This document shows positions 31,560-43,507 of a DNA stretch of 64,000 nucleotides, piece after piece (position 1 is the first letter of the stretch; every line of letters starts with the position of its first letter). Origin of the DNA: Amycolatopsis sacchari (GTDB lineage: Bacteria; Actinomycetota; Actinomycetes; Mycobacteriales; Pseudonocardiaceae); NCBI RefSeq assembly GCF_900114035.1, contig NZ_FORP01000007.1, positions 62,001 through 126,000 on the forward strand, in the 5' to 3' direction. The notes below the pieces were generated by a model. It searched no databases. It worked only from the letters and a program-made list of their open reading frames with translations, and had not been told where the DNA came from. The translations under genes were made by a program, and so were the position numbers.

Positions 31560-32309
31560 TCACCCCGTCCACCGCGCGATGCCCAGCGCCGCTGCCCGCA
31601 CGGCCGGGGCGAGCCGGTCCACCGCGGCCCGGGAGTGCGCCACGATGCCGAGCGCGGCGCGGACCTTGCCGTCCAGCCCGAGCACCGGGGCCGCAACGGA
31701 CACCGCGCCCAGCGTCATCTCCTCGTAGCAGTACGCGACCCCCGTCTTCCGCACCTCGGCGAGCGCGGCGGCGAGCCGTCCCGGCTGGGTGATCGTGTGC
31801 GGGGTCATCCGCGCCAGCCCGGCGTCCGCGACCGACCGGAGGAGTTCCTTGTCCGAAAAGGCCAGGATGGCCTTGCCGACCCCGGTCGCGTGCAGGGGCA
31901 GGCGGCCGCCGATGTGCGTCATCGTCGGCACGGCCTTCGAGCTGGAGATCTTGTCGATGCACAACGCCTGCGTGCCCTCCAGCACGGTCAGCTGGATGTT
32001 CTCCTGCGTGGCCTGGAACAGGTCGTGCATGAACGGCAGCGCCGCCTCCCGCAACCCCCGCTGCCGCGGCGCGAGCGAGCCGATCGTCCACAGGCGCATC
32101 CCCACGCGGTAGCGGCCGTCGTCGAGGCGTTCCAGGCCGCCCCACGCGCACAACTCGCCGATGAGCCGCCGAGCCGTCGACACAGGCAGACCGCTGCGGG
32201 TCGCGACCTCCGTGAGCGACAACGCCGGGTGCGCCACGTCGAAGCAGTCGAGAACGCTCAGCAACCGCCGGGAAACCGTCTGCCCAGGGGTGTTCGTCCG
32301 GCCCGCCAC
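31560..32309 (-). CDS. IclR-family transcriptional regulator of the hydroxyquinol operon
   Basis: About 249 residues. The winged helix includes LSLTEVATRSGLPVSTARRLIGELCAWGGLERL, and the effector domain contains IQLTVLEGTQALCIDKI, LPLHATGVGKAILAF and the C-terminal VAAPVLGLDGKVRAALGI. The GTG at 32309 is chosen. An in-frame TTG at 32345 would put the first codons inside the perfect dyad at 32329-32345, which is more likely the regulator's own operator. It diverges from the leader ORF and MFS gene of the hydroxyquinol operon and is the obvious regulator, probably sensing a pathway acid. Confidence 0.88.
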   Translation of the reverse strand: MAGRTNTPGQTVSRRLLSVLDCFDVAHPALSLTEVATRSGLPVSTARRLIGELCAWGGLERLDDGRYRVGMRLWTIGSLAPRQRGLREAALPFMHDLFQATQENIQLTVLEGTQALCIDKISSSKAVPTMTHIGGRLPLHATGVGKAILAFSDKELLRSVADAGLARMTPHTITQPGRLAAALAEVRKTGVAYCYEEMTLGAVSVAAPVLGLDGKVRAALGIVAHSRAAVDRLAPAVRAAALGIARWTG

Positions 32310-32328
32310 CTCCGCAATGTAGCCGCGA

Positions 32329-32345
32329 TTGCCACTGGATGGCAA
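32329..32345. promoter_or_regulatory. 17-bp inverted repeat in the IclR/hydroxyquinol-operon gap
   Basis: TTGCCA-CTGGA-TGGCAA is a perfect 6+5+6 dyad. It lies 19 bp upstream of the chosen IclR start and 82 bp upstream of the leader ORF, in the divergent control region. Size and position match an IclR-family operator acting on both directions. Confidence 0.62.
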
Positions 32346-32426: not shown

Positions 32427-32480
32427 ATGTCGGCACGTCAGGCAGGCCGCGAAACTGCCACTGGGCGGGAAAGCCGGTGA
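32427..32480 (+). CDS. 17-residue leader ORF coupled to the MFS gene
   Basis: ATG at 32427 is preceded by the near-perfect ribosome site AAGGAGG at eight bases. It encodes MSARQAGRETATGRESR and its TGA overlaps the GTG of the polyol-permease-like gene (GTGA, 32477-32480). The downstream GTG itself has only a weak ribosome site, so translation of the leader probably feeds the carrier gene. Four of seventeen codons are arginine. It could be a small regulatory/leader peptide or only a translation-enabling ORF. A sequencing frameshift that splits a longer N-terminus is an alternative. Confidence 0.5.
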   Translation: MSARQAGRETATGRESR

Positions 32481-33736
32481 GCGGGTTCTGGGCCCGGCAG
32501 GGCATCGTCCCTCACCTCCGCTGGGGGTTCGTGGCGCTCACCCTGTTCATGATCGGTGACGGGATCGAATCCGGGTTCCTCTCGCCGTACCTGGCCGAGC
32601 ACGGTTTCGGCGCCGGGCAGACGTCGCTGCTGTGGAGCGTCTACGGGTTCGTCGTCGCGGTCGCGGCGTGGCTGTCGGGCGCGCTCGCGGAGGCCTTCGG
32701 ACCTCGCCACGTGATGCTCGCGGGGTTCGCGATCTGGGTCGTCTTCGAGGTCGCGTTCCTCGTCGCGCTCGCACAGGGGAACTTCACGGTCATGCTGCTC
32801 GCGTTCGGCGTCCGCGGCCTCGGTTACCCGTTGTTCTCCTACGGTTTCCTCGTCTGGGTCGCGACCGACACGCCGGAAGCCGCGCTGGGCAAGGCGGTCG
32901 GCTGGTACTGGTTCTTCTTCGTGCTCGGGCTCGGGGTGGTCAGCTCCTACTACGCGGGCGCGGTCCTCCCGGTGCTCGGGGAGTTCGGGACACTGGCCTC
33001 GTCGCTGGCGTTCATCGGAGTCGGCGGGCTCCTGCTGCTGTTCCTCGTGAAGGCCCGCAGGCCCGCCCCGGCCGGGCTGCGCAGCAGTCTGCGCTCCGTC
33101 CTCGGCGCGTTCACGATCGTCGTGGAACGGCCGAAGATCGGGCTCGCCGGCATCGTCCGGGTGATCAACACCCTGGGGTTCTACGCGTTCGTCGTGTTCC
33201 TGAGCACGTTCATGGTCCGGGACGTCGGGCTGTCCACGCCGCAGTGGCAGACGGCCTGGGGCACGCTGACGTTGACCAACATCCTCGCCAACGTGGTGTT
33301 CGGCTACGTCGCCGACCGCATCGGCCGGGTCCGCACCGTCGCGTGGTTCGGCGGGCTGCTGTGCGCGCTGAGCGTGCCCGCCTTCTACTACGTCCCGCAG
33401 CTGGCGGGCCCGAACTTCTGGGCGATCCTCCTGGTGGCGGTCGTCTACGGCGCCGGGCTGTCGGGTTTCGTCCCGCTGTCGGCGATCGCGCCCGCACTGG
33501 CGCCACACCGCGTCGGCGCGGCCATCGCGATCCTCAACCTCGGCGCGGGGGTGAGCCAGTTCCTGGGCCCGGTCTCGGCCGGGCTCGTCGGGCCCCTGGG
33601 CGTGGCCGGCACGCTGTGGCTCATCGCCGGGCTCTACGTCGTCGGCATCGTCCTCACCCACTGCCTGCGGGAACGACGTGCCACAGAGGATCACTCCACA
33701 TCGGACAAGACTCTGACCGGAAGGACGGCAGCATGA
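32477..33736 (+). CDS. MFS transporter, polyol permease (RbtT/DalT/CsbX)-like
   Basis: A 419-residue, twelve-helix carrier. HLRWGFVALTLFMIGDGIESGFLSPYL at the N-terminus (the FMIGDG-E-G-LSPYL pattern) is characteristic of the ribitol/arabitol permease and CsbX family, and SGALAEAFGPRHVMLAGF is the loop 2-3 motif. First full gene of the plus-strand operon. It is GTGA-coupled to the 17-codon leader and ATGA-coupled to the esterase after it. A polyol- or cyclitol-type substrate for an operon that ends in aromatic ring cleavage is notable. The substrate assignment is inference from family resemblance. Confidence 0.87.
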   Translation: MSGFWARQGIVPHLRWGFVALTLFMIGDGIESGFLSPYLAEHGFGAGQTSLLWSVYGFVVAVAAWLSGALAEAFGPRHVMLAGFAIWVVFEVAFLVALAQGNFTVMLLAFGVRGLGYPLFSYGFLVWVATDTPEAALGKAVGWYWFFFVLGLGVVSSYYAGAVLPVLGEFGTLASSLAFIGVGGLLLLFLVKARRPAPAGLRSSLRSVLGAFTIVVERPKIGLAGIVRVINTLGFYAFVVFLSTFMVRDVGLSTPQWQTAWGTLTLTNILANVVFGYVADRIGRVRTVAWFGGLLCALSVPAFYYVPQLAGPNFWAILLVAVVYGAGLSGFVPLSAIAPALAPHRVGAAIAILNLGAGVSQFLGPVSAGLVGPLGVAGTLWLIAGLYVVGIVLTHCLRERRATEDHSTSDKTLTGRTAA

Positions 33737-34434
33737 CCACCTTCGTCCTCGTGCACGGGATGTGGCACGGCGGCTGGGCCTGGGAGCGCGTCGCGTCGCT
33801 GCTGGAAGCGGACGGCCACCCGTGCGTGGCGGTCACGTTGCCCGGCAAGGACCGCGCCCCGGGTGACCCGACGTTCCGCGGGCACTGCGACCACCTCACG
33901 GGTGTCCTCACCGGGATCGACGGTGACGTCGTCCTCGTCGGGCACTCGTATTCCGGGGCGCTGCTCACCGAGGTCGGTGCCGCGCCGAACGTACGCGCGA
34001 TGGTCTACGTGAGCGCGTTCTGCCTCGAACCCGGGGAGTCGGTCGCGTCCGTCAACGACGCCGAAGCCGGTTCCGAGGCCGGGAAGGACGACATCCGCCA
34101 GGTCGGCGACTACCTGGTGATCGACCCGGACACCGCGCGCAACGCCTTCTACCACGACTGCGCGCCGGAGGACGCGGCTTACGCCGTCGAACGCCTCACG
34201 CCCGAGCACGCCGGCACACGGGTGGCGGTGGTCTCGCGGGCGGCGTGGCGGACCGTTCCCTCGCATTTCGTCGTGTGCACGCTGGACCGCGCCTGTACAC
34301 CCGAGGTCCAGCGGATGATGGCGGCGAGGACGCACTCGTGGAGCGAACTGGAGGCGAGCCACTCGCCGATGCTGTCCATGCCCGACGCGGTGGCCCGCAC
34401 GATCGTCAAGTTCGCCGGGGAGCACGTCGCATGA
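33733..34434 (+). CDS. alpha/beta hydrolase, plant-methylesterase-like
   Basis: A 233-residue esterase. FVLVHGMWHGGWAW at the start (oxyanion HGxW), the nucleophile in VLVGHSYSGALL (Ser near residue 75), and the catalytic histidine in ELEASHSPMLSMP mark the hydroxynitrile lyase/methyl salicylate esterase-like subfamily. These enzymes cleave small methyl or aryl esters. ATGA overlaps join it to the MFS carrier before and the SDR after, so it probably removes an ester group from the imported compound. Cytosolic; substrate unknown. Confidence 0.85.
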   Translation: MTTFVLVHGMWHGGWAWERVASLLEADGHPCVAVTLPGKDRAPGDPTFRGHCDHLTGVLTGIDGDVVLVGHSYSGALLTEVGAAPNVRAMVYVSAFCLEPGESVASVNDAEAGSEAGKDDIRQVGDYLVIDPDTARNAFYHDCAPEDAAYAVERLTPEHAGTRVAVVSRAAWRTVPSHFVVCTLDRACTPEVQRMMAARTHSWSELEASHSPMLSMPDAVARTIVKFAGEHVA

Positions 34435-35177
34435 ACGCCCCCGTCGCGATCGTGACCGGCGGGGCCGGAGCACTGGGCAAGGCGATCGCCTCCGTCCTGC
34501 TCGGCGACGGTTTCCGGGTCGCACTGCTGGACCGGCAAGGGACGGAGCACGCCGCGGCGGCGCTGGGCGGCGAGGCCCTGCCCGTCCAAGCCGACGTGAC
34601 CGACGACGAGTCGGTGCGGGCCGCGGTCGAGCAGGTGAACCGGACGTGGGGCCGGGTCGACGCGCTCGTCAACAACGCAGGCATCGAGCCCGCGCACTCG
34701 CTGGCGGACGTGGCGCCGGACACCTGGCGCGCGACGCTGGAGGTCAACCTGACCGGGCCCGCGCTGATGATCAAGCACTGCGTGCCGTGCTGGCGGCGGC
34801 AGGGCGGCGGGCGCGTCGTTTCGATCGGCTCCCGGGTGTGGCTCGGCGGCGGCTGGACACCGGCGTACTCCGCGTCGAAAGCCGGCCTCGTCGGGCTGAC
34901 GCGGGCCGCGTGCCAAGAACTCGGGCCGCTCGGGGTCACGGTCAACATCGTCGCGCCGAGCTTCATGCGCACCCCGTTCAACACGCAGAAGGCCGGCGAC
35001 GGGCTCCTGGCGGAGCACGCCGGGCGGTTCGCCGCCGCCTCGCCGCTGGGCAGGCTGGTGGAACCGGCGGACGTGGCGAACGCCGTGGCGTTCCTCGTCT
35101 CCGACCGGGCCGCGGCCATCACCGGCGAGGTGCTGCACGTGGCCGCGGGCACCCAGCTCGCCCCGGCCGTCCATTGA
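34431..35177 (+). CDS. short-chain dehydrogenase/reductase
   Basis: A 248-residue classical SDR with VTGGAGALGKA (cofactor loop), LVNNAGIEP, a serine in SIGSRVWLG and catalytic YSASK (about residue 147). It lacks an obvious substrate clue. ATGA-coupled to the esterase. Likely oxidises a ring hydroxyl of an alicyclic or partly reduced intermediate to a ketone, with NAD(P). One of two SDRs in this operon. Confidence 0.88.
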   Translation: MNAPVAIVTGGAGALGKAIASVLLGDGFRVALLDRQGTEHAAAALGGEALPVQADVTDDESVRAAVEQVNRTWGRVDALVNNAGIEPAHSLADVAPDTWRATLEVNLTGPALMIKHCVPCWRRQGGGRVVSIGSRVWLGGGWTPAYSASKAGLVGLTRAACQELGPLGVTVNIVAPSFMRTPFNTQKAGDGLLAEHAGRFAAASPLGRLVEPADVANAVAFLVSDRAAAITGEVLHVAAGTQLAPAVH

Positions 35178-35200
35178 GTACAGTGAGGAGATTTACCAAG

Positions 35201-35788
35201 GTGGGGAACAACTTCGAGGACAGGCTCGCCGTGCGCGAGCTGGTCGAGAACTGGGCGGTGTGGCGTGACGCCGGGGACTGGGAGCGGTTCGCCACCGTGT
35301 GGCACCCCGAGGGCTGGATGAGCGCGACGTGGTTTCACGGCCCGGCGGCGGAGTTCATCGCCGCCAGCAAGGCGGGGTTCGAGCGCGGCGTGAGCATCCT
35401 GCACTTCCTGGGCGGGCACACCGCGGACATCGAGGGCGACCGGGCCGTCGCCCAGACGAAGATGACGATCAGCCAGCGCGCCGCGGTCGACGGCGTCGAG
35501 GTCGATGTCGTGTGCACCGGCCGGTTCTACGACTTCTGCGCCCGGCACGAGGGGCGGTGGAAGATCGTGCGCAGGCAGCCGATCTACGAGAAGGACCGGC
35601 TCGACCCCGTCGATCCGGCCGCCGAACTGGTGCTCGACCAGGAGCTGCTGAACCGGTTCCCCGTCGGGTACCGGCACCTGGGCTACGTGCAGACCAAGGC
35701 CGGGTTCACGGTCAGGACCGGGCTGCCCGGTCTGACCGGTGAGGCGGTCGAGCGGCTTTACGACGAGGGTGCGAAATGGCTGGTGTGA
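35201..35788 (+). CDS. NTF2-like (SnoaL/scytalone-dehydratase-type) protein
   Basis: About 195 residues with the cone-shaped alpha+beta barrel pattern. DRLAVRELVENWAVWRDAGDWERFATVWHPEGWM opens the fold, and HFLGGHTADIEGDRAVAQTKMTISQRA, then RFYDFCARHEGRWKIVRRQPIYEKDR, form its sheet. GTG 35201 has GAGGAG ten bases upstream; a TTG at 35174 overlapping the SDR stop is an alternative that would add nine residues. Such proteins act as dehydratases, isomerases or hydroxylase partners. In an operon lacking a clear monooxygenase, a dehydratase or aromatising role is attractive but unproven. Its end overlaps the next gene by 13 bp. Confidence 0.78.
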   Translation: MGNNFEDRLAVRELVENWAVWRDAGDWERFATVWHPEGWMSATWFHGPAAEFIAASKAGFERGVSILHFLGGHTADIEGDRAVAQTKMTISQRAAVDGVEVDVVCTGRFYDFCARHEGRWKIVRRQPIYEKDRLDPVDPAAELVLDQELLNRFPVGYRHLGYVQTKAGFTVRTGLPGLTGEAVERLYDEGAKWLV

Positions 35789-36615
35789 CGGAGAAGTTCC
35801 TCAACTGCAGCGCGAACACCCTGCGTGCGGCCGATCTGCCGACGCGGGTTTCGGCGGCGGCCTCGGCCGGATTCGCCGGGATCGGGCTGCGCGTGCGCGA
35901 CTACCTCGAAGCGGACATGGCCGACGAGGAGATCCGCGACCTGCTGGACCGGCACGGGCTGCGGGTGCTCGAGTTCGAGCACAACTGGGACTGGGCCCTC
36001 GGCGTGGATCCCACGGAGGAGGCCATGCTGCGCTTCGCCGGGCGGATCGGGGTGCGCCACCTCAACGTCCCGATGTTCGCCGAGCACCCGCTGTCCGATC
36101 TCGTCGAGCCGTTCGGGGCGCTGTGTGACCGCGCGGCGGAGCACGGCGTGCTGGTGGGGTTCGAATTCCTGCCCTACAGCCACGTGCGCACGATCGGCGA
36201 GGTGTGGGAGGTGGTCACGGCGGCGGGCCGCCCCAATGCCGGGATCACGCTGGACCTGTGGCACTGGTTCCGCTCCGGCGCCCGTGTCGAGGACCTGGCC
36301 GGTATCCCCGCTTCGGCGATCACCACGGTGCAGCTGTGCGACGTGCGTGCCGAACCCGGGCCCGACCTGACCGAGGAGGCGCGGCACCGCCGCCTGCTCC
36401 CCGGGCGGGGTGCCGGGAACACGCGGGAAGTGCTGACCGCACTGCGGGAGCACGGGGTCCGCGCGCCGGTGTCGGTCGAGGTGTTCTCCGACGACCTGGA
36501 CGCGCTCCCACCGGCCGAAGCGGCGCGGCTCGCGTTCGACGCGGGCGCCGAGGTCCTCGACGCCACCGGTCTGCCCGCCCCGTCCTGGACCACGAACCTG
36601 GAGGGTGCCCGGTGA
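35776..36615 (+). CDS. sugar phosphate isomerase/epimerase family TIM barrel
   Basis: A 279-residue xylose-isomerase-like TIM barrel (PF01261). LEFEHNWDWALG, LVGFEFLPYSHVRTIGE, AGITLDLWHWFRSG and VSVEVFSDDLDAL supply the glutamate, aspartate, histidine and glutamate residues expected for the divalent metal site. Family members include inosose dehydratase (IolE), 3-dehydroshikimate dehydratase and 2-keto-myo-inositol isomerase. Coupled on both sides. A dehydratase that helps turn a cyclitol-like ketone into an aromatic triol would fit the neighbouring dioxygenase; this is inference. Confidence 0.85.
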   Translation: MAGVTEKFLNCSANTLRAADLPTRVSAAASAGFAGIGLRVRDYLEADMADEEIRDLLDRHGLRVLEFEHNWDWALGVDPTEEAMLRFAGRIGVRHLNVPMFAEHPLSDLVEPFGALCDRAAEHGVLVGFEFLPYSHVRTIGEVWEVVTAAGRPNAGITLDLWHWFRSGARVEDLAGIPASAITTVQLCDVRAEPGPDLTEEARHRRLLPGRGAGNTREVLTALREHGVRAPVSVEVFSDDLDALPPAEAARLAFDAGAEVLDATGLPAPSWTTNLEGAR

Positions 36616-37481
36616 CCGGCTTCTCCGAGGAGAACTCGGCGCAGGTCGTCGCCGAGAGCTTCGCCGCCACCCCCGATCCACGGCTGAAGCAGGTGTTGAC
36701 GAGCCTCGTCGAGCACCTGCACGCGTTCGTCAAGGACGTCGAGCCCAGCGAAGCGGAATGGCAGCAGGCGATCGACTTCCTCACCGCCACCGGGCACAAG
36801 TGCGACGACACGCGGCAGGAGTTCGTCCTGCTCTCCGACGTGCTCGGCGTGTCGATGCTGGTCGACGCGATCAACAACCGGAAGTCCCCCGCCGCCACGG
36901 ACACCACCGTGCTCGGCCCGTTCCACCTGGTCGACTCCCCGCCGCGGGAGCTGGGCGCGAACATCTCCCTGGACCACAACGGCGAACCGTGCGTGTTCGC
37001 CGGGCAGGTCCGCTCCTCCGACGGGACGCCGCTGCCTGGGGCACGCGTCGACGTGTGGCAGGCCAACGGGGCCGGGTACTACGACGTCCAGCAGCCCGGG
37101 GTCCAGCCCGAGCGCAACCTGCGGGGGTTGTTCACCACGGACGAGCACGGCCGGTTCTGGTTGCGGACCGTCGTGCCGCGCTACTACCCCATTCCCGACG
37201 ACGGCCCGGTCGGCCGCCTGCTCGCCGCGACCCGGCGGCACCCGAACCGGCCGGCGCACATCCACGTCATCGCCGAAGCCGCCGGGCACGCCCCGCTGAC
37301 CACCCACGTGTTCGTCGAAGGCAGCCCGTACCTGGACTCCGACACGGTGTTCGGGGTGAAGGAGTCGCTGATCCGGCCGGTCACGACCGTCGACGACCCC
37401 GGACGCGCGCGGCACTACGGGACCGCGAACCCGTTCCGGCTCATCGAGTTCGACGTGGTCCTGGACAGGGTGGCGTCGTGA
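36612..37481 (+). CDS. hydroxyquinol 1,2-dioxygenase (intradiol type)
   Basis: A 289-residue non-haem Fe(III) intradiol dioxygenase. The N-terminal helical dimer domain (LTSLVEHLHAFVKDVEPSEAEWQQAI) and ISNRKS-like INNRKSPAATDTTVLGPF are typical of hydroxyquinol and catechol dioxygenases. The iron ligands are Tyr157 (GYYDVQ), Tyr192 (RYYPIP), His216 and His218 (HIHV), with the usual 24-residue gap between the second Tyr and first His. It opens 1,2,4-trihydroxybenzene to maleylacetate. GTGA overlaps couple it to the isomerase before and to maleylacetate reductase after, which secures the hydroxyquinol assignment over catechol. Confidence 0.93.
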   Translation: MTGFSEENSAQVVAESFAATPDPRLKQVLTSLVEHLHAFVKDVEPSEAEWQQAIDFLTATGHKCDDTRQEFVLLSDVLGVSMLVDAINNRKSPAATDTTVLGPFHLVDSPPRELGANISLDHNGEPCVFAGQVRSSDGTPLPGARVDVWQANGAGYYDVQQPGVQPERNLRGLFTTDEHGRFWLRTVVPRYYPIPDDGPVGRLLAATRRHPNRPAHIHVIAEAAGHAPLTTHVFVEGSPYLDSDTVFGVKESLIRPVTTVDDPGRARHYGTANPFRLIEFDVVLDRVAS

Positions 37482-38539
37482 GCCTCGACTTCGTCCACGA
37501 AACCCGGCCCGGCCGGGTCGTCTTCGCGGTCGGCGCGCGGCACCGGCTGCCCGAGGAGGTCGATCGCCTCGGCCTGCGCCGCCTGCTCGTCGTGTCCACC
37601 CCGGAACAGGCCGCGCTCGCCGCCGAGCTGACCGCCCCGCTCGGGGGCCGGGTCGCCGAACCCCACCCGCACGCCACCATGCACGTGCCGGTCGCGGTCG
37701 CGGAGCGGGCCGTCGCGCGTGCCCGGGAAGCCGGTGCCGACGGCTGCCTCGCCGTGGGCGGGGGCTCGGCGATCGGGCTGGCGAAGGCGGTCGCGAAGGA
37801 GACCGGGCTGCCGATCGTCGCGGTGCCCACGACGTACGCCGGGTCCGAGATGACGCCGATCTGGGGCCTGACCGGCGCCGACCGCAAGACCACCGGCCGT
37901 GATCCGCGCGTGCTTCCGTCCACAGTGGTCTACGACCCCGAGCTGACCGTGACGCTCCCGCCCGGGCTGTCGGTCACCAGCGGGATGAACGCCCTCGCGC
38001 ACTCCGCCGAGGCGCTCTACGCGCCCGACTGTTCGCCGGTCACGGCGCTCGCCGCGGCGGATTCGGTGCGGGCCCTCGCCGCCGCCCTGCCGCGCGTGGC
38101 CGCCGATCCCGGTGACCTGGAGGCCCGCTCGGACGCCCTCTACGGGGCGTGGCTCGCGGGCACCGCGCTGGGCTCGACGACGATGTCCCTGCACCACAAG
38201 CTCTGCCACATCCTCGGCGGCACCTTCGACCTCCCGCACGCCCAGACCCACACCGCGGTACTCCCCCACGTCCTCGCCCTCAACCTGCCCGCCGCGCCCC
38301 GGGCGCGGGCCGCGCTGGAGCACGCGCTGGGCACGGAGAACCCCGCCGCACACCTGTTCCGGCTCGCACGGGACCTGGGCGCGGAGATGTCGCTCAAGGC
38401 AATGGGCATGCCGGAGGACGGCGTGGAAACCGTTGTCACGCAAGCGTTCGCCGCACCCTACGCCAACCCGCGCCCGGTCACCCGAACCGATCTGCGGCGT
38501 CTGCTCGGCGACGCACTCGCCGGGACCGCACCCGCCTGA
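37478..38539 (+). CDS. maleylacetate reductase
   Basis: A 353-residue iron-alcohol-dehydrogenase-fold enzyme that reduces maleylacetate to 3-oxoadipate with NAD(P)H. It shows LAVGGGSAIGLAKAVA (nucleotide site), VPTTYAGSEMTPIWG, SGMNALAHSAEALYAP and the HKLCHILGGTFDLPHAQTH block, which are diagnostic of maleylacetate reductases. Length is normal. The GTG start overlaps the dioxygenase stop. Its product is the entry compound of the 3-oxoadipate pathway. The CoA-transferase in the minus-strand operon near 11 kb might act on it, though that operon has its own regulator. Confidence 0.94.
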   Translation: MSLDFVHETRPGRVVFAVGARHRLPEEVDRLGLRRLLVVSTPEQAALAAELTAPLGGRVAEPHPHATMHVPVAVAERAVARAREAGADGCLAVGGGSAIGLAKAVAKETGLPIVAVPTTYAGSEMTPIWGLTGADRKTTGRDPRVLPSTVVYDPELTVTLPPGLSVTSGMNALAHSAEALYAPDCSPVTALAAADSVRALAAALPRVAADPGDLEARSDALYGAWLAGTALGSTTMSLHHKLCHILGGTFDLPHAQTHTAVLPHVLALNLPAAPRARAALEHALGTENPAAHLFRLARDLGAEMSLKAMGMPEDGVETVVTQAFAAPYANPRPVTRTDLRRLLGDALAGTAPA

Positions 38540-38557
38540 CTGTCCAACGGAGGACAC

Positions 38558-39904
38558 ATGCCCACTCTCGACCTGCGCACCGTCATCGACCGGCACGGCG
38601 TCGGCGGCCTGCAACGCCGGGTCCTGCTGCTGTGCCTGGGAGTCACGACCCTCGACGGGATCGACGTCGCGATGGTCAGCTACCTCGGGCCTTCGCTCAT
38701 CGCGGACTGGCACATCGGCAAGGCCCAGCTCGGGCCCGTCGTCACCAGCGGGCTCCTCGGCCTGGCGCTCGGTTCCCTGATCGCGGGGCCGCTGGCCGAC
38801 CGGCTCGGCCGCCGCAAGGTCATCCTCGCCTCGCTCGTCTTCTTCGGGCTGATGAGCGCGGCGACCGCGCTGAGCACAAACATCCTGTGGTTCTCGGTCC
38901 TGCGCGTGCTCACGGGGTTCGGCCTCGGCGCCGCGCTGCCCAACGCCACAACGCTCGTGTCCGAATACGCCCCTTCCCGGCGGCGCAGCCACCTGATGGC
39001 GCTGACCTACTGCGGGATGACGCTGGGCGGGGCGGTCGCCGGGTACCTCACCAGCCTGTTCGTGCAGGTCGCGAGCTGGCACTGGGCACTGGTCGCGGGC
39101 GGGGTCCTCCCGCTCGCCTACGCCGTCGTCGTCGCCGCGGCCCTGCCCGAGTCACCGAAGTTCCTCGCCCGCCGGCCCGGACGCCAGGCGGAACTGGTCG
39201 CGCTGATGAACCGCGTGGTGCCCGAGCGGTTCGGCGCGGACACCCGGTTCTCGCTCGACGAACCCGCCGTCGCCGCGCGCGTCCCGGTCGCCGGGCTGGT
39301 CACGCGCCGGTTCCGGCTCGGCACCCTCACCATCTGGACCGGGTTCGTGTGCGCGTTCTTCATCGTGTACCTGATGAACAGCTGGCTGCCCATCCTGATG
39401 ACCGACGTCGGTTTCTCGCTGACCGCCGCCGCGACGATGGGCCTGCTGCTGCAGGCGGGCGGCACGCTCGGGAACCTGGGCATCGGCTGGCTGATGGACC
39501 GCTTCGGGCTGCACCGCACCGTAGCCGTCGCGATGAGCTGCGCCGCCGTGATGCTCGTCCTCGTCGCACTCGCGCCCGCCCACGTGCTGGTCCTCGGCAT
39601 CCTGATCTTCGTGCTGGGCATGTTCACCAACACCGTCGGCACGGCCTTCCCGATCCTGTCCGCCGCCTTCTACCCCACGTCCATCCGCGCCACGGGGACC
39701 AGCTGGGCCACCGGTATCGCGCGCTTCGGCGCCATCGGCGGCGCGGCCGCCGGCACGGTGCTCGTCGCCGCCGGACTGCACTACCGGCAGGTCTTCCTCG
39801 CCCTGCTCGTGCCCGCCGCGATCTGCGTCGTGGCGGTGGCGGTCAAGGGCAGGCACACGTCCACAATGGAGCGAGCCGCGGAACGCGCGCCCGTGATCCG
39901 GTGA
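38558..39904 (+). CDS. MFS transporter, aromatic acid:H+ symporter (AAHS)-like
   Basis: A 448-residue, twelve-helix carrier. LLCLGVTTLDGIDVAMVSYLGPSLIADW in helix 1 (the DGxD motif of AAHS carriers) and AGPLADRLGRRKVILAS in loop 2-3 resemble PcaK, BenK and MhpT, which import aromatic acids. It starts 18 bp after maleylacetate reductase with GGAGGA before the ATG. A second importer in the operon suggests that aromatic acids as well as a polyol-like compound enter this pathway. Confidence 0.9.
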   Translation: MPTLDLRTVIDRHGVGGLQRRVLLLCLGVTTLDGIDVAMVSYLGPSLIADWHIGKAQLGPVVTSGLLGLALGSLIAGPLADRLGRRKVILASLVFFGLMSAATALSTNILWFSVLRVLTGFGLGAALPNATTLVSEYAPSRRRSHLMALTYCGMTLGGAVAGYLTSLFVQVASWHWALVAGGVLPLAYAVVVAAALPESPKFLARRPGRQAELVALMNRVVPERFGADTRFSLDEPAVAARVPVAGLVTRRFRLGTLTIWTGFVCAFFIVYLMNSWLPILMTDVGFSLTAAATMGLLLQAGGTLGNLGIGWLMDRFGLHRTVAVAMSCAAVMLVLVALAPAHVLVLGILIFVLGMFTNTVGTAFPILSAAFYPTSIRATGTSWATGIARFGAIGGAAAGTVLVAAGLHYRQVFLALLVPAAICVVAVAVKGRHTSTMERAAERAPVIR

Positions 39905-39918
39905 AAGGAACCACATCC

Positions 39919-40659
39919 ATGCGACTGCACGACAAGATCGCCCTCATCACCGGCGCCGCCGGTGGCATGGGCCGCGCCACGGCCGAGGCCTTCGCCCGCG
40001 AGGGCGCGACGGTGTTCATCGCCGACATCCTCGACGACGAGGGCACCACCACGGCCAAGGAGATCGGTGCCGCGGGCTACCTGCACCTCGACGTCACCGA
40101 CGAGACGTCGTGGACGGCCGCGATCGAGGAGGTCACGAAACGGTCCGGGCGGCTCGACGTGCTGGTCAACAACGCGGGCATCAGCGGCACCTTCGACCCC
40201 GACCTCACCAGCACGGAGTTCTTCGACCGGCTCATGCTGGTCAACGCGCGTGGCGTGTTCCTCGGCATCAAGCACGGCACCGCCGCCATGGCCCGCACCG
40301 GTGGCGGCTCGATCGTCAACCTCTCGTCCATCTCCGCCTCGATCGGTCAGCCCGGCGTGCACCTCGGCTACGGCGCGTCCAAGGCCGCCGTGAGGTCCAT
40401 GACGCGCACCGCCGCCGTGCACTACGCCGACGCCGGGATCCGGGTCAACGCCGTCGCCCCCGGCATGCTTCCGCCGATGCGCACCTCCCGCGGCTCGGCG
40501 GACCCGGTGTGGCGGGCGGAGCAGATCGACGGCGTGCCGATGAAGCGGGCCGGGGAGGTGCGCGAGGTCGCCGACGCCGTGTTGTTCCTGGCCAGCGACG
40601 AAGCCTCTTATGTGACGGGCGTGGAGCTCCTCGTCGACGGCGGCCTCACAGCTGCTTGA
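39919..40659 (+). CDS. short-chain dehydrogenase/reductase
   Basis: A 246-residue classical SDR: LITGAAGGMGRATAEAF cofactor loop, LVNNAGISG, a serine in NLSSISASIG, and catalytic YGASK (about residue 154). AAAGGAA precedes the ATG, and only 14 bp separate it from the AAHS gene, so it is the last gene of the operon. Its last 14 bp overlap the convergent dehalogenase-like gene. Similar to 3-oxoacyl-ACP reductase/3-alpha-hydroxysteroid dehydrogenase-type SDRs; substrate probably an alicyclic alcohol of the pathway. Confidence 0.88.
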   Translation: MRLHDKIALITGAAGGMGRATAEAFAREGATVFIADILDDEGTTTAKEIGAAGYLHLDVTDETSWTAAIEEVTKRSGRLDVLVNNAGISGTFDPDLTSTEFFDRLMLVNARGVFLGIKHGTAAMARTGGGSIVNLSSISASIGQPGVHLGYGASKAAVRSMTRTAAVHYADAGIRVNAVAPGMLPPMRTSRGSADPVWRAEQIDGVPMKRAGEVREVADAVLFLASDEASYVTGVELLVDGGLTAA

Positions 40660-41515
40660 GGAACGCCTCGACGGCTTCGAGGGTTTCGCGAGGCGCTTCC
40701 TCGGGGACGTAGTGCCCGCCGGGTACGGCACGCCCCGACACCGCCGCGGGATCGGCGTGGTGCTCCTGCCAGATCCGCACTACGTCGCTCCCGGCGAGAC
40801 CGCCTTCGGCGCCCCACAGCACCAGCAGCGGTGCCCGCACCCGCACCCCGCGCGCGTGATCGGCCTCGTCGCGTTCGAGGTCGACCGTGAAACCGGTGCG
40901 GTAGTCCTCAAAGGACGCCCGCAGGTGCGCGGGATCGCTGAAGGCGGTGACGTAGTGCTGGAAGGTCTCCTCGTCGACGGCCCCGGATTCCCGTACCCGC
41001 GCGAAGAAGTGCCCCAGGTACGCCTCGACGTTGCCCGACACCAGCCGCTGGGCCAGATCGGGATCGCGGTGGAAGAACCAGTGCCACATCGCGCTCGCCG
41101 AGTCGCGGTCGAACGAGTTCATCACCACCCGGGTCGGCAGGATGTCGAGCAGCACGAGCGCGTCCACTTCGGACGGACGGTCGAGCGCCCAGCGGTGTGC
41201 CACCCGGGCCCCGCGGTCGTGCCCGACCACCGTGGCGGAGGTGAACCCCAGGTGCCGGATCAGCCCGCCCAGGTCGGCGGCGGTGGCGCGCTTGTCGTAC
41301 GCGCCCGACCGCGCCAGCCCCGAAGCGCCGTACCCGCGTAGGTCCGGGACGACGACGGTGCGCCCCTCGCTCAGCGGGCCGGCGAGGTGGCGCCAGCACT
41401 CGCCGGTCTGCGGCCAGCCGTGCAGCAGGACGACGAGCTCCGGCCCGTCACCGGCGACGCGGTAGGCCAGCTCGACGTCGTCGAGGCGCACCGATTCGAG
41501 CGGTTGGCGAGGCAT
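40646..41515 (-). CDS. haloacetate/fluoroacetate dehalogenase-like hydrolase
   Basis: A 289-residue alpha/beta hydrolase with an Asp nucleophile. VVGHDRGARVAH gives Asp100, Arg101 and Arg104, the nucleophile and carboxylate-binding arginines of fluoroacetate dehalogenase. MWHWFFHRD gives His145 and Trp146, and FEDYRT gives Tyr205, the residues that hold the leaving fluoride in that enzyme. His268 in GGHYVPEEAP completes the triad. LLVLWGAEGG and ADLGGLIRHLG are also typical. Expected reaction: hydrolysis of haloacetate to glycolate and halide. An epoxide hydrolase role is the alternative. It is convergent with the hydroxyquinol operon and co-oriented with the LysR gene. Confidence 0.82.
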   Translation of the reverse strand: MPRQPLESVRLDDVELAYRVAGDGPELVVLLHGWPQTGECWRHLAGPLSEGRTVVVPDLRGYGASGLARSGAYDKRATAADLGGLIRHLGFTSATVVGHDRGARVAHRWALDRPSEVDALVLLDILPTRVVMNSFDRDSASAMWHWFFHRDPDLAQRLVSGNVEAYLGHFFARVRESGAVDEETFQHYVTAFSDPAHLRASFEDYRTGFTVDLERDEADHARGVRVRAPLLVLWGAEGGLAGSDVVRIWQEHHADPAAVSGRAVPGGHYVPEEAPRETLEAVEAFLKQL

Positions 41516-41566: not shown

Positions 41567-42517
41567 TCAGGACGCGCCAAGGGCCGGTTGCCGCTCAGTG
41601 GCAGCCGGGTGCCGGGCGAGCAGGGCGTCGAGGCGGCTGCCGACCTCCGCGCAGTTCTCCCGCACCACGGACAGGAACGCCGCGAGCACCGGCGAGGAAT
41701 CGGCCGCCCGGAACGACATCCGCAGGTCCGGCAACCGGAAACGGGGCGTGACGTCGCAGAACCGGACGTCCTCGCGGGCGATCAGCCGCATCCGGGACGG
41801 GCCGAGCCCGACCCCGGCGCAGCACGCGGCGAGACCCGCGATCGTGTGCACGTCACGGGCCTTCGCGGCCGCGTCGAGCACGGACGGATCCGCGCCGAAC
41901 AACGGCCTGAGGTACGAACTCGCCGCCTCCGGGCTGACGATGAGCGGCTCGTGCGCGAGCTGGTCGACGGAGACCGCCGGGCGCCCGGCGAAGGGGTGCA
42001 CCACGGACACCACGGCCACCAGGTGGTCCGCCCCGATCGGCACGCTCACCAGGTCCTCGGCACCGGCACCTCGCGGGCCGCCCCGCCCGACTGCCACGTC
42101 CAGCTCGCCCGCGAGCAGTGCGGCGTCGGCGTTGTCCAGTTCCTGCAAGGAAAGCCGGACCTCCGGGCGGCTCCGGCGGAACTTCCCCAGCACGCCGGGC
42201 AGCGGGTCGAGGAGCGAGGAACCGATGAACCCGATGCGCAGGCGCCCGGTCTCCCCGCGTGCCGCCCGGGCGGCGTCGACGCGCGCGAGGTCCATCTCCG
42301 CGAGTGCCGCGCGTGCCCTGGCGAGGAAGGCGTCGCCCGCCGCCGTCGGGAACACGCCGCGTGGCGTGCGGTCGAACAACCGCTCGCCGACCTCGCGCTC
42401 GAGCGCGGCGATCTGGGTCGACAGCGGCGGCTGGGCGATCCCGAGCGACGCCGCGGCGCGGCCGAAGTGCTGGTGCTCGGCGAGGGCGAGCGCGTAGCGC
42501 AGATGACGGGCCTCCAC
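41567..42517 (-). CDS. LysR-family transcriptional regulator
   Basis: About 316 residues. The N-terminal HTH is HLRYALALAEHQHFGRAAASLGIAQPPLSTQIAALEREVGERLFDR; the C-terminal periplasmic-binding-like sensor begins at LRIGFIGSSLLDPLPGVL. GTG 42517 starts at VEARHLRY, the usual LysR opening; a GTG three codons upstream is possible. It diverges from the alpha/beta hydrolase-MFS pair, with a loose ATATC/GATAT dyad between them, and lies upstream of the dehalogenase-like gene on the same strand. Either set may be its target. Confidence 0.92.
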   Translation of the reverse strand: MEARHLRYALALAEHQHFGRAAASLGIAQPPLSTQIAALEREVGERLFDRTPRGVFPTAAGDAFLARARAALAEMDLARVDAARAARGETGRLRIGFIGSSLLDPLPGVLGKFRRSRPEVRLSLQELDNADAALLAGELDVAVGRGGPRGAGAEDLVSVPIGADHLVAVVSVVHPFAGRPAVSVDQLAHEPLIVSPEAASSYLRPLFGADPSVLDAAAKARDVHTIAGLAACCAGVGLGPSRMRLIAREDVRFCDVTPRFRLPDLRMSFRAADSSPVLAAFLSVVRENCAEVGSRLDALLARHPAATERQPALGAS

Positions 42518-42538
42518 GCGGACCACGATACGTGTGGG

Positions 42539-42564
42539 ATATCGCGAGAGCCATGGTGAGATAT
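42539..42564. promoter_or_regulatory. ATATC-N16-GATAT dyad in the LysR/hydrolase gap
   Basis: ATATC at 42539-42543 and GATAT at 42560-42564 form an inverted pair in the divergent gap, 22 bp upstream of the LysR start. LysR-type sites are loose T-N11-A dyads of this kind in exactly this place. The arms are short, so it may be chance. Confidence 0.35.
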
Positions 42565-42637
42565 GCCGGTGGATGACGGCCGGGCCGTCCGGTGAGCTGG
42601 AGGAGTCGTTGACCAGCTCTACCGGAAGGAAATTCCC

Positions 42638-43507
42638 GTGCACCGTCCGTCCTCGTCCGAGACCGTCGTGCTGCTCGTCCACGGCGCCTGGCACTCCTCC
42701 GTGCACTGGGCGCCGACGCAGCGCGCACTGGCGCGTCACGGCCTCGCGAGCGTGGCGATCGACCTGCCGGGCAGCGGGCTCGGCGCACCGCTGCCCCGCG
42801 GGTTCCACCTGCCGGGCCAGCCCGGCCTCGACGGCGAGAAGTCCGCGCTGCACGACGTCACGATGGGGCAGCTGACCGAGGTGGTGCTCGACGCGCTCGC
42901 CGAGGCCCGCACCCGGTACCGCCACGTCGTCCTCGTCGGGCACAGCGCCGGTGGCGGCCCGTGCTCGGCCGCCGCGGAACAGGCCCCGGAACTGCTCGAC
43001 CACCTCGTGTACCTGTCCGCGTTCGTCCCGGCGGGCCGCCCGCGGTTCGCCGACTACATCGCCGCCGAGGAGAACGCGGACGCCGTCCGGATCCCGATGC
43101 TGGGCGATCCCGCCGAGCTGGGTGCCTTCCGGATCAACCCGCTCTCCCCCGACCCGGCCGAGATCGGCCTGCTGCGCCGCGCCTTCCTCAACGACCTGCC
43201 GGCGGACGCCCCGGACTCGTGGCGCCAGTTCCTCCACCCCGACCACCCGTACGCGAGCTTCAGCACCCCGGTACCGGTTTCGCCGGGGCGCTGGGGCAGC
43301 GTCGACCGCACCTTCATCCGGCTGACCGACGACCAGTCGCTGCCACCCGCCACCCAGGACCTGATGATCGCCGAGGCCGACGCCGTCGCGCCGGAGCGGC
43401 CGTTCCACGTGCACTCCCTGCCCGGCGGCCACTCGCCGTTCGTGACGCGGCCCGCGGAGCTGGCGAAGGTGCTCGCCGCGACCGCACTGCGGCGGACGTC
43501 CCGATGA
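42638..43507 (+). CDS. alpha/beta hydrolase
   Basis: A 289-residue hydrolase. VVLLVHGAWHSSVHWAP (oxyanion loop), VVLVGHSAGGGPCSAAA (Ser near residue 109) and HSLPGGHSPFVTRP (catalytic His) define the fold and triad. It has no signal peptide. The GTG start is weakly preceded by GGAAGGAAA. ATGA overlap couples it to the drug-type MFS gene downstream, and the LysR regulator diverges from it. It may detoxify or degrade an ester or lactone that the carrier then exports. Substrate unknown. Confidence 0.85.
   Translation: MHRPSSSETVVLLVHGAWHSSVHWAPTQRALARHGLASVAIDLPGSGLGAPLPRGFHLPGQPGLDGEKSALHDVTMGQLTEVVLDALAEARTRYRHVVLVGHSAGGGPCSAAAEQAPELLDHLVYLSAFVPAGRPRFADYIAAEENADAVRIPMLGDPAELGAFRINPLSPDPAEIGLLRRAFLNDLPADAPDSWRQFLHPDHPYASFSTPVPVSPGRWGSVDRTFIRLTDDQSLPPATQDLMIAEADAVAPERPFHVHSLPGGHSPFVTRPAELAKVLAATALRRTSR

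What the first reader, a model, noticed from the sequence alone, without database searches (positions are those of the whole stretch)
32427..40659. Hydroxyquinol pathway operon with polyol-type carrier and no monooxygenase
Hydroxyquinol dioxygenase and maleylacetate reductase are certain. Known routes make hydroxyquinol with flavin monooxygenases from resorcinol or nitrophenol; none is encoded here. Instead there are a polyol-permease-like carrier, an esterase, two SDRs, an NTF2-like protein and an inosose-dehydratase-like TIM barrel. I infer that an alicyclic polyol (cyclitol- or quinate-like), perhaps esterified, is dehydrogenated and dehydrated to the aromatic triol. That would be an oxygenase-free entry into hydroxyquinol catabolism.
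Basis: partly seen in the sequence, partly recalled or inferred. Interest (0 to 1): 0.7.

Follow-up and report, generated by a model that had tools for sequence, protein, structure and literature searches.

The report
Oxygenase-free hydroxyquinol operon with decarboxylase
A conserved soil-bacterial gene cluster appears to turn a non-aromatic ring acid into the aromatic compound hydroxyquinol by dehydrogenation, water loss and CO2 loss, without the usual oxygen-using enzyme; the exact food compound is unknown.

Summary
The operon is real, conserved and, as far as my searches show, uncharacterised. Hydroxyquinol dioxygenase (HQD) and maleylacetate reductase (MAR) hold up. No flavin monooxygenase was found within 5 kb in any of 21 related loci, whereas 25 of 34 other HQD loci of the family have one (HMMs partly trained on the controls; the cleaner test is 1 of 21 against 7 of 14 within 8 kb, p 0.003). 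An IclR operator (TTGCCACTGNRYGGCAA) occurs in relatives only at these loci: 9 exact sites in 7 of 12 genomes, none in 5.

The "NTF2-like" protein is a full-length relative of the cofactor-free gallate/protocatechuate decarboxylases AGDC1/PPP2 (Foldseek E 3e-19, TM 0.90), keeping eight substrate and catalytic residues. The TIM barrel is nearer to dehydroshikimate dehydratase than to inosose dehydratase. So I infer a carboxylated alicyclic substrate, aromatised to a trihydroxybenzoate and decarboxylated to hydroxyquinol. Dehydrogenases are swapped between loci; Sinorhizobium relatives add type II dehydroquinase; a Paraburkholderia locus adds sugar ABC, aldehyde and Gfo/Idh dehydrogenases. The substrate is unknown; no assay was run.

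The parts
31560..32345 (-). IclR-family regulator (PcaR/PcaU/PobR-like), divergent; true start may be nearer 32309
   Evidence: Pfam IclR_C 5e-39; best NCBIfam TIGR02431 144 bits, below its cut-off 284.75; present in 21 of 21 loci
32329..32345 (.). conserved operator TTGCCACTGGATGGCAA (inverted repeat), site 1
   Evidence: aligned in intergenic regions of 12 loci; in the window 3 distinct sites (5 strand matches) at up to 3 mismatches, 0.67 matches expected; 9 exact sites in 12 relatives, all at this locus
32455..32471 (.). operator site 2 (2 mismatches), inside the leader ORF
32427..32480 (+). 17-codon leader ORF with strong Shine-Dalgarno, overlapping the permease start by GTGA
   Evidence: whether it is translated is unknown
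32477..33736 (+). MFS permease, RbtT/DalT/CsbX polyol family
   Evidence: TIGR00897 473.8 bits over cut-off 375; in 13 of 21 loci
33733..34434 (+). alpha/beta hydrolase ABH1, weakly like SABP2/polyneuridine-aldehyde esterase
   Evidence: Abhydrolase_6 3e-26; best PDB matches about 2e-12; in 13 of 21 loci
34431..35177 (+). SDR1, short-chain dehydrogenase
   Evidence: in 15 of 21 loci
35183..35788 (+). NTF2/SnoaL_4 protein: predicted cofactor-independent hydroxybenzoate decarboxylase, AGDC1/PPP2 type
   Evidence: hmmsearch PDB 1e-30/1e-28; Foldseek ranks 1-10 all PPP2/AGDC1; eight substrate/catalytic residues kept
35785..36615 (+). xylose-isomerase-like TIM barrel, QuiC/Lmo2234-like: predicted dehydratase (aromatising)
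36612..37481 (+). hydroxyquinol 1,2-dioxygenase
37478..38539 (+). maleylacetate reductase (Fe-ADH family)
   Evidence: Pfam Fe-ADH domains; homologues next to HQD are named maleylacetate reductase in annotated records
38558..39904 (+). MFS carrier, aromatic-acid/H+ symporter type (PcaK-like)
   Evidence: HbztTptrPcaK 356 bits (cut-off 770), TIGR00895 334 bits (cut-off 418.55), both below cut-off
39919..40659 (+). SDR2, short-chain dehydrogenase
   Evidence: PDB matches include cyclohexanol dehydrogenase 4ure 5e-43; in 15 of 21 loci
40646..41515 (-). alpha/beta hydrolase ABH2, fluoroacetate-dehalogenase/epoxide-hydrolase-like, under the same operator
   Evidence: 3qyj 1e-58, fluoroacetate dehalogenases 2e-50; homologue in 16 of 21 loci, 3 of these only 36-38% identical
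41588..41604 (.). operator site 3, upstream of ABH2 (1 mismatch)
   Evidence: exact site at the same place in two relatives, G162 and G092

Best explanation
The operon takes up a polyhydroxylated, probably esterified, cyclohexane- or cyclohexene-carboxylate. The esterase ABH1 frees it, an SDR oxidises a ring alcohol to a ketone, the QuiC-like barrel removes water and aromatises the ring to a trihydroxybenzoate (most simply 2,4,5-trihydroxybenzoate), and the AGDC1-type NTF2 protein removes CO2 to give hydroxyquinol. HQD and MAR then make 3-oxoadipate. Shown: gene content, conservation, predicted fold and active-site conservation, operator distribution. Inferred: each reaction upstream of HQD, their order, and the substrate.
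For: NTF2: PPP2 and AGDC1 are by far the strongest PDB relatives (1e-30, 1e-28; next 3.5e-4) and take Foldseek ranks 1-10 at 3e-19 to 4e-16, next scytalone dehydratase 1e-8. Residues matching AGDC1 T60, W61, H86, Y150, Q192 are kept in 93 of 93 distinct homologues; W35, R39, D40 in all that cover them except 3 with S for R39 (roles from PMC7862292). TIM: after Lmo2234 (function unknown) the best relative is 5hmq, a TIM barrel/HPPD fusion (that it is QuiC1 is recalled): 2e-24, Foldseek 3e-17 against IolE 1e-11; NCBIfam's best is QuiC, below cut-off. NTF2-TIM adjacent in 21 of 21, HQD 19, MAR 18. No flavin monooxygenase within 5 kb in 21 loci against 25 of 34 controls. Operator only at this locus in 7 of 12 relatives, no exact site in the other 5. 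Loci lacking both SDR orthologues carry Gfo/Idh (L041, L042, L045 by Pfam; L089-type sequence and the fourth Gfo/Idh match) or AroE-like (L044) genes. S. meliloti adds type II dehydroquinate dehydratase and an enolase-superfamily gene beside NTF2-HQD-TIM-MAR; S. americanum CCGM7 has both too, the dehydroquinase about 9 kb off. Paraburkholderia L260: TIM, HQD, NTF2, aldehyde dehydrogenase, sugar ABC, SDR, Gfo/Idh, MAR.
Against: No assay or expression data. IolI is almost as close to the barrel as 5hmq (1.5e-21, Foldseek 6e-17). NTF2 homologues of 67-72% identity occur without HQD or MAR in 28 of 29 contigs outside the class of the named actinobacteria, some of them short, and with flavin or Rieske oxygenases in other HQ clusters, so NTF2 is not specific to this route. 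The K+ ligand E88 of AGDC1 is not kept (L in 92 of 93) and Y146 is R in 93 of 93. Sugar-ABC clusters with TIM, SDRs, HQD and MAR in Rhodococcus and L172 lack the long NTF2, which fits a neutral substrate there. L041 and L089 have other, less similar SDR genes nearby. No natural acid with the needed oxygen pattern is established.
Confidence: 0.5

Rival explanations
1. Neutral cyclitol route: a deoxy-inositol-type polyol is dehydrogenated and dehydrated twice, with NTF2 and the barrel as dehydratases, giving hydroxyquinol with no carboxylate stage.
For: Polyol permease family over cut-off; sugar ABC clusters with TIM, SDRs, HQD and MAR but no long NTF2; scytalone dehydratase and LinA share the fold at a distance; IolI is close to the barrel.
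Against: NTF2 keeps the AGDC1 tryptophan clamp, carboxylate-binding Arg and catechol-binding residues; the barrel is QuiC-like and no inosose dehydratase model is reported by NCBIfam at 1e-3.
Confidence: 0.13
2. Ordinary route: hydroxyquinol is made by a flavin monooxygenase encoded elsewhere, and this operon only finishes the job while the barrel and SDRs do something side-related.
For: 27 FAD_binding_3 matches in the genome; other NTF2-HQD-MAR clusters do carry flavin oxygenases.
Against: No flavin monooxygenase within 5 kb of any of 21 loci; the exact operator is found only at this locus in relatives; NTF2 and TIM are adjacent in 21 of 21 loci.
Confidence: 0.17
3. Aromatic acid input: an imported trihydroxybenzoate or gallate is simply decarboxylated by NTF2; HQD may then cleave pyrogallol or hydroxyquinol, and the barrel and SDRs serve another substrate.
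For: PcaK-like carrier; AGDC1 acts on gallate and protocatechuate (PMC7862292); Streptomyces clusters pair NTF2 with Rieske oxygenase and aldehyde dehydrogenase.
Against: The TIM gene next to NTF2 in 21 of 21 loci and the swapped alicyclic-type dehydrogenases are then unexplained; HQD groups with hydroxyquinol enzymes.
Confidence: 0.15

Closest known systems
Hydroxyquinol branch of the beta-ketoadipate pathway (resorcinol, nitrophenol clusters)
   Same: HQD and MAR, with regulators and carriers
   Different: no clustered flavin monooxygenase; decarboxylase-type protein, QuiC-like barrel and SDRs instead
AGDC1/PPP2 cofactor-independent hydroxybenzoate decarboxylases (PMC7862292)
   Same: predicted fold over the full length, His-Asp dyad, tryptophan clamp, catechol- and carboxylate-binding residues
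   Different: bacterial; K+ ligand E88 is L (V once); Y146 is R and V148 is P in all 93 homologues examined
Quinate/shikimate catabolism (AroE/QuiB, dehydroquinase, QuiC to protocatechuate)
   Same: barrel related to QuiC; AroE-like genes near two actinobacterial loci (L032, L044) and type II dehydroquinase in Sinorhizobium loci; PcaK-type carrier
   Different: end point hydroxyquinol, not protocatechuate; decarboxylase-type protein added; the host also has a separate 604-aa TIM barrel/HPPD-like fusion beside a Shikimate_dh_N gene (L049)
Inositol catabolism (IolG/IolE/IolI)
   Same: Gfo/Idh dehydrogenases and sugar ABC carriers in some relatives; IolI fold close
   Different: no inosose dehydratase model matched by NCBIfam; no iol operon was recognised, though none was searched for

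Membership tests
Known monooxygenase-dependent hydroxyquinol clusters | hydroxyquinol dioxygenase and maleylacetate reductase | tested here: met
Known monooxygenase-dependent hydroxyquinol clusters | clustered flavin monooxygenase | tested here: not met
AGDC1/PPP2 decarboxylases | fold over full length | tested here: met
   predicted model, TM 0.83-0.90, ranks 1-10
AGDC1/PPP2 decarboxylases | H86-D40 dyad, W35/W61 clamp, R39, T60, Y150, Q192 | tested here: met
   (R39 is S in 3 of 93)
AGDC1/PPP2 decarboxylases | K+ ligand E88 | tested here: not met
   L in 92 of 93, V in 1
AGDC1/PPP2 decarboxylases | decarboxylase activity | not testable with these tools
   needs an assay; described as AGDC1-type by fold and active site, not filed as a proven member
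3-dehydroshikimate dehydratase (QuiC) | barrel fold and columns E127, D157, Q183, E232 | tested here: met
   that these four columns bind metal is recalled
3-dehydroshikimate dehydratase (QuiC) | NCBIfam QuiC cut-off | tested here: not met
   76 bits against 1200, a 635-position model
myo-inosose dehydratase (IolE) | NCBIfam match to an inosose dehydratase model | tested here: not met
   no such family reported at E 1e-3
RbtT/DalT/CsbX polyol permeases | TIGR00897 over cut-off | tested here: met
   473.8 against 375; substrate not testable

The most novel reading that the evidence does not exclude
The operon family degrades C7 carbasugars or cyclitols of the valiolone type (one ring oxygen more than quinate, because they derive from sedoheptulose phosphate rather than DAHP; recalled). 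After oxidation of the hydroxymethyl group to a carboxylate, the same two eliminations that turn dehydroquinate into protocatechuate give 2,4,5-trihydroxybenzoate, and the AGDC1-type enzyme gives hydroxyquinol: C7H12O6 to C7H10O7 to C7H6O5 to C6H6O3. The Paraburkholderia locus L260 (sugar ABC, SDR, Gfo/Idh, aldehyde dehydrogenase, barrel, decarboxylase-type NTF2, HQD, MAR) has the parts this needs, and the Sinorhizobium loci have a type II dehydroquinase.
Probability: 0.14. Interest if true: 0.85.

Novelty: new variant of a known kind. Interest (0 to 1): 0.6.

Why it matters
Hydroxyquinol is usually treated as a product of oxygenases acting on aromatics. A route that builds the aromatic triol from an alicyclic acid by dehydrogenation, dehydration and decarboxylation would be a new entry to a central pathway, would give functions to widespread genes annotated only as "nuclear transport factor 2 family" and "sugar phosphate isomerase/epimerase" beside hydroxyquinol genes, and would add a bacterial family of cofactor-free decarboxylases that could be useful in biotechnology.

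Tried and rejected
Neutral-cyclitol chemistry with NTF2 as dehydratase: downgraded after the PDB and Foldseek results. C-glycoside cleavage (recalled: Gfo/Idh plus AP_endonuc_2 barrel): not favoured, because the barrel profile's 8 PDB matches (QuiC-type fusion, IolI, Lmo2234, AsbF, epimerases and others) name no C-glycosidase. Quinate or shikimate as the direct substrate: gives protocatechuate, then catechol, not hydroxyquinol (own reasoning). NTF2 as specific to hydroxyquinol: rejected, since 28 of 29 contigs from outside the named actinobacteria lack HQD and MAR. Monooxygenase contrast: 14 HMM seeds came from 14 CTRL1 loci; after reading the misses I added an acyl-CoA-dehydrogenase-like class (4 CTRL2 loci), P450 (2 CTRL2, 1 CTRL1) and Rieske/VanA seeds (5 Streptomyces genes). 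This favours finding them in controls. Counting the first seed set on the untouched CTRL2 set alone: 7 of 14 with a hit within 8 kb against 1 of 21 (p 0.003). The acyl-CoA-dehydrogenase-like class counts as a flavin monooxygenase only by recall of HsaA-type enzymes (Pfam shows just Acyl-CoA_dh domains); without it the control count is 21 of 34, not 25. A whole-phylum search with the barrel alignment gave, besides the own genome, 6 of 396 genomes with distant barrels only. Papers: ten answered searches, judged from listings, showed no paper on monooxygenase-free hydroxyquinol formation; passages of PMC10512348 and PMC12388069 were also seen, the latter citing hydroxyquinol from protocatechuate by a fungal hydroxylase. 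The library lacks most subscription journals.
Full report
Setting. The window is 64 kb of contig C49 of a 7.59-Mb, 99.99% complete genome. Relatives in the same GTDB genus carry the operon on contigs whose lengths equal named Amycolatopsis contigs (for example 1,754,180 bases: G162, A. deserti), so the host is most likely an Amycolatopsis (inference).

Observation. The genes lie on one strand with overlaps or short gaps: permease, esterase ABH1, SDR1, NTF2, TIM barrel, HQD, MAR, PcaK-like carrier, SDR2. The permease passes the RbtT/DalT/CsbX cut-off. HQD is closest to 6-chlorohydroxyquinol and hydroxyquinol dioxygenases in the PDB and far from catechol dioxygenases. The divergent IclR gene and the convergent hydrolase ABH2 belong to the unit as well.

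Conservation. The barrel finds relatives at E <= 1e-20 in 40 of 297 family genomes; 14 places in 13 of these genomes, the own included, are over 50% identical, plus an Embleya plasmid. With six more loci found through NTF2, 21 loci were compared: IclR 21, NTF2 21, TIM 21, HQD 19, MAR 18, ABH2 16 (3 only 36-38% identical), SDR1 15, SDR2 15, PcaK-like carrier 14 (2 at 44-45%), polyol permease 13, ABH1 13, a second barrel 5. NTF2 presence is by construction for the six loci found with it, not for the other 15. Dropped before the count: L047 (truncated barrel, no operon genes), seven duplicate contigs, and barrels under 45% identity. HQD and MAR are absent from L035, whose genome has a second locus with both (L042). 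L045 lacks HQD and keeps a 65-residue MAR remnant. MAR is also absent from L040.

No clustered monooxygenase. With HMMs for five flavin-dependent classes, one P450 and two Rieske classes, 1 of 21 loci had a hit within 5 kb (a P450 in L043) and 2 of 21 within 8 kb (L036 adds a flavin-type hit at 7.5 kb); other HQD loci of the family had 26 of 34 within 5 kb and 28 of 34 within 8 kb (p 1e-7 each). For flavin classes alone within 5 kb it is 0 of 21 against 25 of 34, or 21 of 34 if the acyl-CoA-dehydrogenase-like class, whose monooxygenase role I only recall, is left out. The HMMs were trained partly on the controls and some classes were added after reading the misses. The cleaner comparison, first seed set on the untouched 14 control loci, is 7 of 14 against 1 of 21 within 8 kb (p 0.003). 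Pfam confirms FAD_binding_3 or HpaB for four control enzymes sampled (L162, L168, L170, L173). As a family-blind check, 102 neighbours of the 21 loci that match no operon gene (205 of 307 did) were scanned: none of the 25 most frequent Pfam families is a monooxygenase, while Gfo/Idh (4 members) and Shikimate_dh_N (2) are listed (132 families matched, the rest not shown). Flanks were shorter than 8 kb in a few loci.

Regulon. The intergenic region holds the inverted repeat TTGCCACTGGATGGCAA, conserved in most of 12 loci aligned. In 12 other genomes with the operon the exact motif TTGCCACTGNRYGGCAA occurs 9 times in 7 genomes and not at all in 5; by coordinates all 9 lie at the operon, 7 beside IclR and 2 upstream of ABH2; the reversed control pattern occurs 0 times. 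In the window's own genome the only sites with at most one mismatch are the IclR site and the ABH2 site; with up to two mismatches there are 9 sites against 27 for the reversed control, so the seven two-mismatch sites mean nothing by themselves. No monooxygenase gene was seen under an exact site, though the genome has 27 FAD_binding_3 matches and an uncoordinated one cannot be ruled out.

NTF2 is a decarboxylase-type protein. A profile of 13 homologues finds PPP2 and AGDC1 in the PDB at 1e-30 and 1e-28 over the whole length, where scytalone dehydratase (1e-3) matches only the first half. The AlphaFold model (pLDDT 94.6) matches ten PPP2/AGDC1 chains first (TM 0.83-0.90) and then falls to 1e-8. 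I read the abstract and sections 5, 9, 12 and the first part of 13 of PMC7862292: W35 and W61 clamp the carboxylate, R39 anchors it, H86-D40 protonate, and T60, Y150 and Q192 hold the catechol hydroxyls. In 93 distinct bacterial homologues T60, W61, H86, Y150 and Q192 are invariant and W35, R39 and D40 nearly so; but Y146, which in docking meets gallate's third hydroxyl, is Arg in 93 of 93, and the K+ ligand E88 is lost. That points to a decarboxylase with a different third substituent than gallate (inference).

TIM barrel. Its best solved relative is Lmo2234, of unknown function (2e-63), then 5hmq, a TIM barrel/HPPD fusion (QuiC1, recalled; 2e-24), then IolI (1.5e-21), with AsbF weaker; by fold the order is the same, IolI close behind 5hmq, AsbF and IolE later. 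It shares with 5hmq the columns E127, D157, Q183, E232 and an RHxRxxPGxG stretch. The barrels of the sugar-ABC clusters L201 and L172 have F-N in place of R-H there, which fits a different, perhaps uncharged, substrate (inference).

Swapped dehydrogenases. Five of 21 loci have neither SDR orthologue. L041, L042 and L045 carry a Gfo/Idh gene, L089 a gene that is most likely the fourth Gfo/Idh match, and L044 an AroE-like gene with an esterase and an MFS carrier beside it. L041 and L089 also have less similar SDR genes nearby. This suggests a common ketone intermediate reached from different polyols.

Wider relatives. On plasmids, NTF2 homologues occur in 25 records; besides Embleya I opened 14. 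NTF2 with HQD, MAR and a TIM barrel: S. meliloti Rm41 and MABNR56 (plus type II dehydroquinase, enolase superfamily, aldo/keto reductase, a FAD_binding_2 oxidoreductase), S. americanum CFNEI 73 and CCGM7 plasmid A (plus enolase-superfamily and GMC genes, and in CCGM7 a dehydroquinase about 9 kb off), Caballeronia NK8 (an annotated FAD monooxygenase about 10 kb away), Paraburkholderia PGU19 and PREW-6R. With a flavin oxygenase-like gene and no barrel: Agrobacterium 15-1187-1-2a (FMO-like domain), P. hospita, and Cupriavidus P-10 (28-29% like the PheA/TfdB-type control; in Cupriavidus HQD and this gene lie 8-10 kb from NTF2, and no MAR was seen). With HQD and MAR but neither: Shinella WSD5-1 and R. 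erythropolis R138 (P450 nearby). Without HQD: B. elkanii and S. americanum CCGM7 plasmid C (NTF2 in two pieces). In the best 80 of 285 GTDB contigs with NTF2 relatives, HQD or MAR lies within the fetched locus in 41 of 51 actinobacterial loci of the named genera (one a MAG) and in 1 of 29 others, which are mostly proteobacterial MAGs and include a Thermoleophilia MAG. In 49 actinobacterial NTF2 loci clustered, 18 carry the Rieske oxygenase family and 20 the aldehyde dehydrogenase family seen in Streptomyces.

Mechanism. Putting this together, the best reading is a ring keto acid aromatised by the barrel and decarboxylated by NTF2 to hydroxyquinol. It explains why NTF2 recurs beside HQD and MAR in clusters with different upper pathways. 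Which acid is unknown. Quinate-type eliminations give hydroxyquinol only if the ring has one more oxygen, next to the carboxyl-bearing carbon. C7 cyclitols of the valiolone type have that oxygen, and a carboxylate once the hydroxymethyl is oxidised (own reasoning; formulas written out), and L260 encodes suitable dehydrogenases and a sugar importer. This is a proposal, not a result.

Limits. No substrate, expression or enzyme data; the reactions upstream of HQD rest on homology and gene context. Gene calls in fetched loci come from my own simple caller. The paper searches covered an open-access library only.

Noticed in passing
window 32427-32480: A 17-codon leader ORF with a strong Shine-Dalgarno overlaps the permease start by GTGA and contains the second operator; a similar arrangement is seen in several relatives.
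   Followed up: partly
L076, L061 and similar Streptomyces loci: A recurrent cluster of Rieske oxygenase, reductase, DUF4440 protein, aldehyde dehydrogenase, AGDC1-type NTF2, MAR and HQD; perhaps for 2,4,5-oxygenated (coumarin- or asarone-like) aromatics.
   Followed up: no
L087-L129, mostly proteobacterial and acidobacterial contigs: NTF2 homologues (67-72% identity) without hydroxyquinol genes; in 10 loci a protein that looks like a tripartite tricarboxylate receptor (name recalled) lies nearby.
   Followed up: partly
L201, L263 (Rhodococcus opacus, R. jostii RHA1 pRHL1), L172: Clusters of TIM barrel, SDRs, HQD, MAR, DUF4440 and a sugar ABC importer with no monooxygenase seen; a possible separate neutral-cyclitol route, in RHA1 in a model strain.
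   Followed up: partly
2g0w (Lmo2234) matches: The barrel's closest solved structure is an uncharacterised Listeria protein titled putative sugar isomerase; it may be a dehydratase.
   Followed up: no
L045 8354-10323: Decayed copy: HQD missing and only a 65-residue MAR remnant left beside NTF2 and barrel genes.
   Followed up: no
window 41567-44901: LysR, alpha/beta hydrolase and MFS genes next to the operon are conserved in several relatives but not in all.
   Followed up: no
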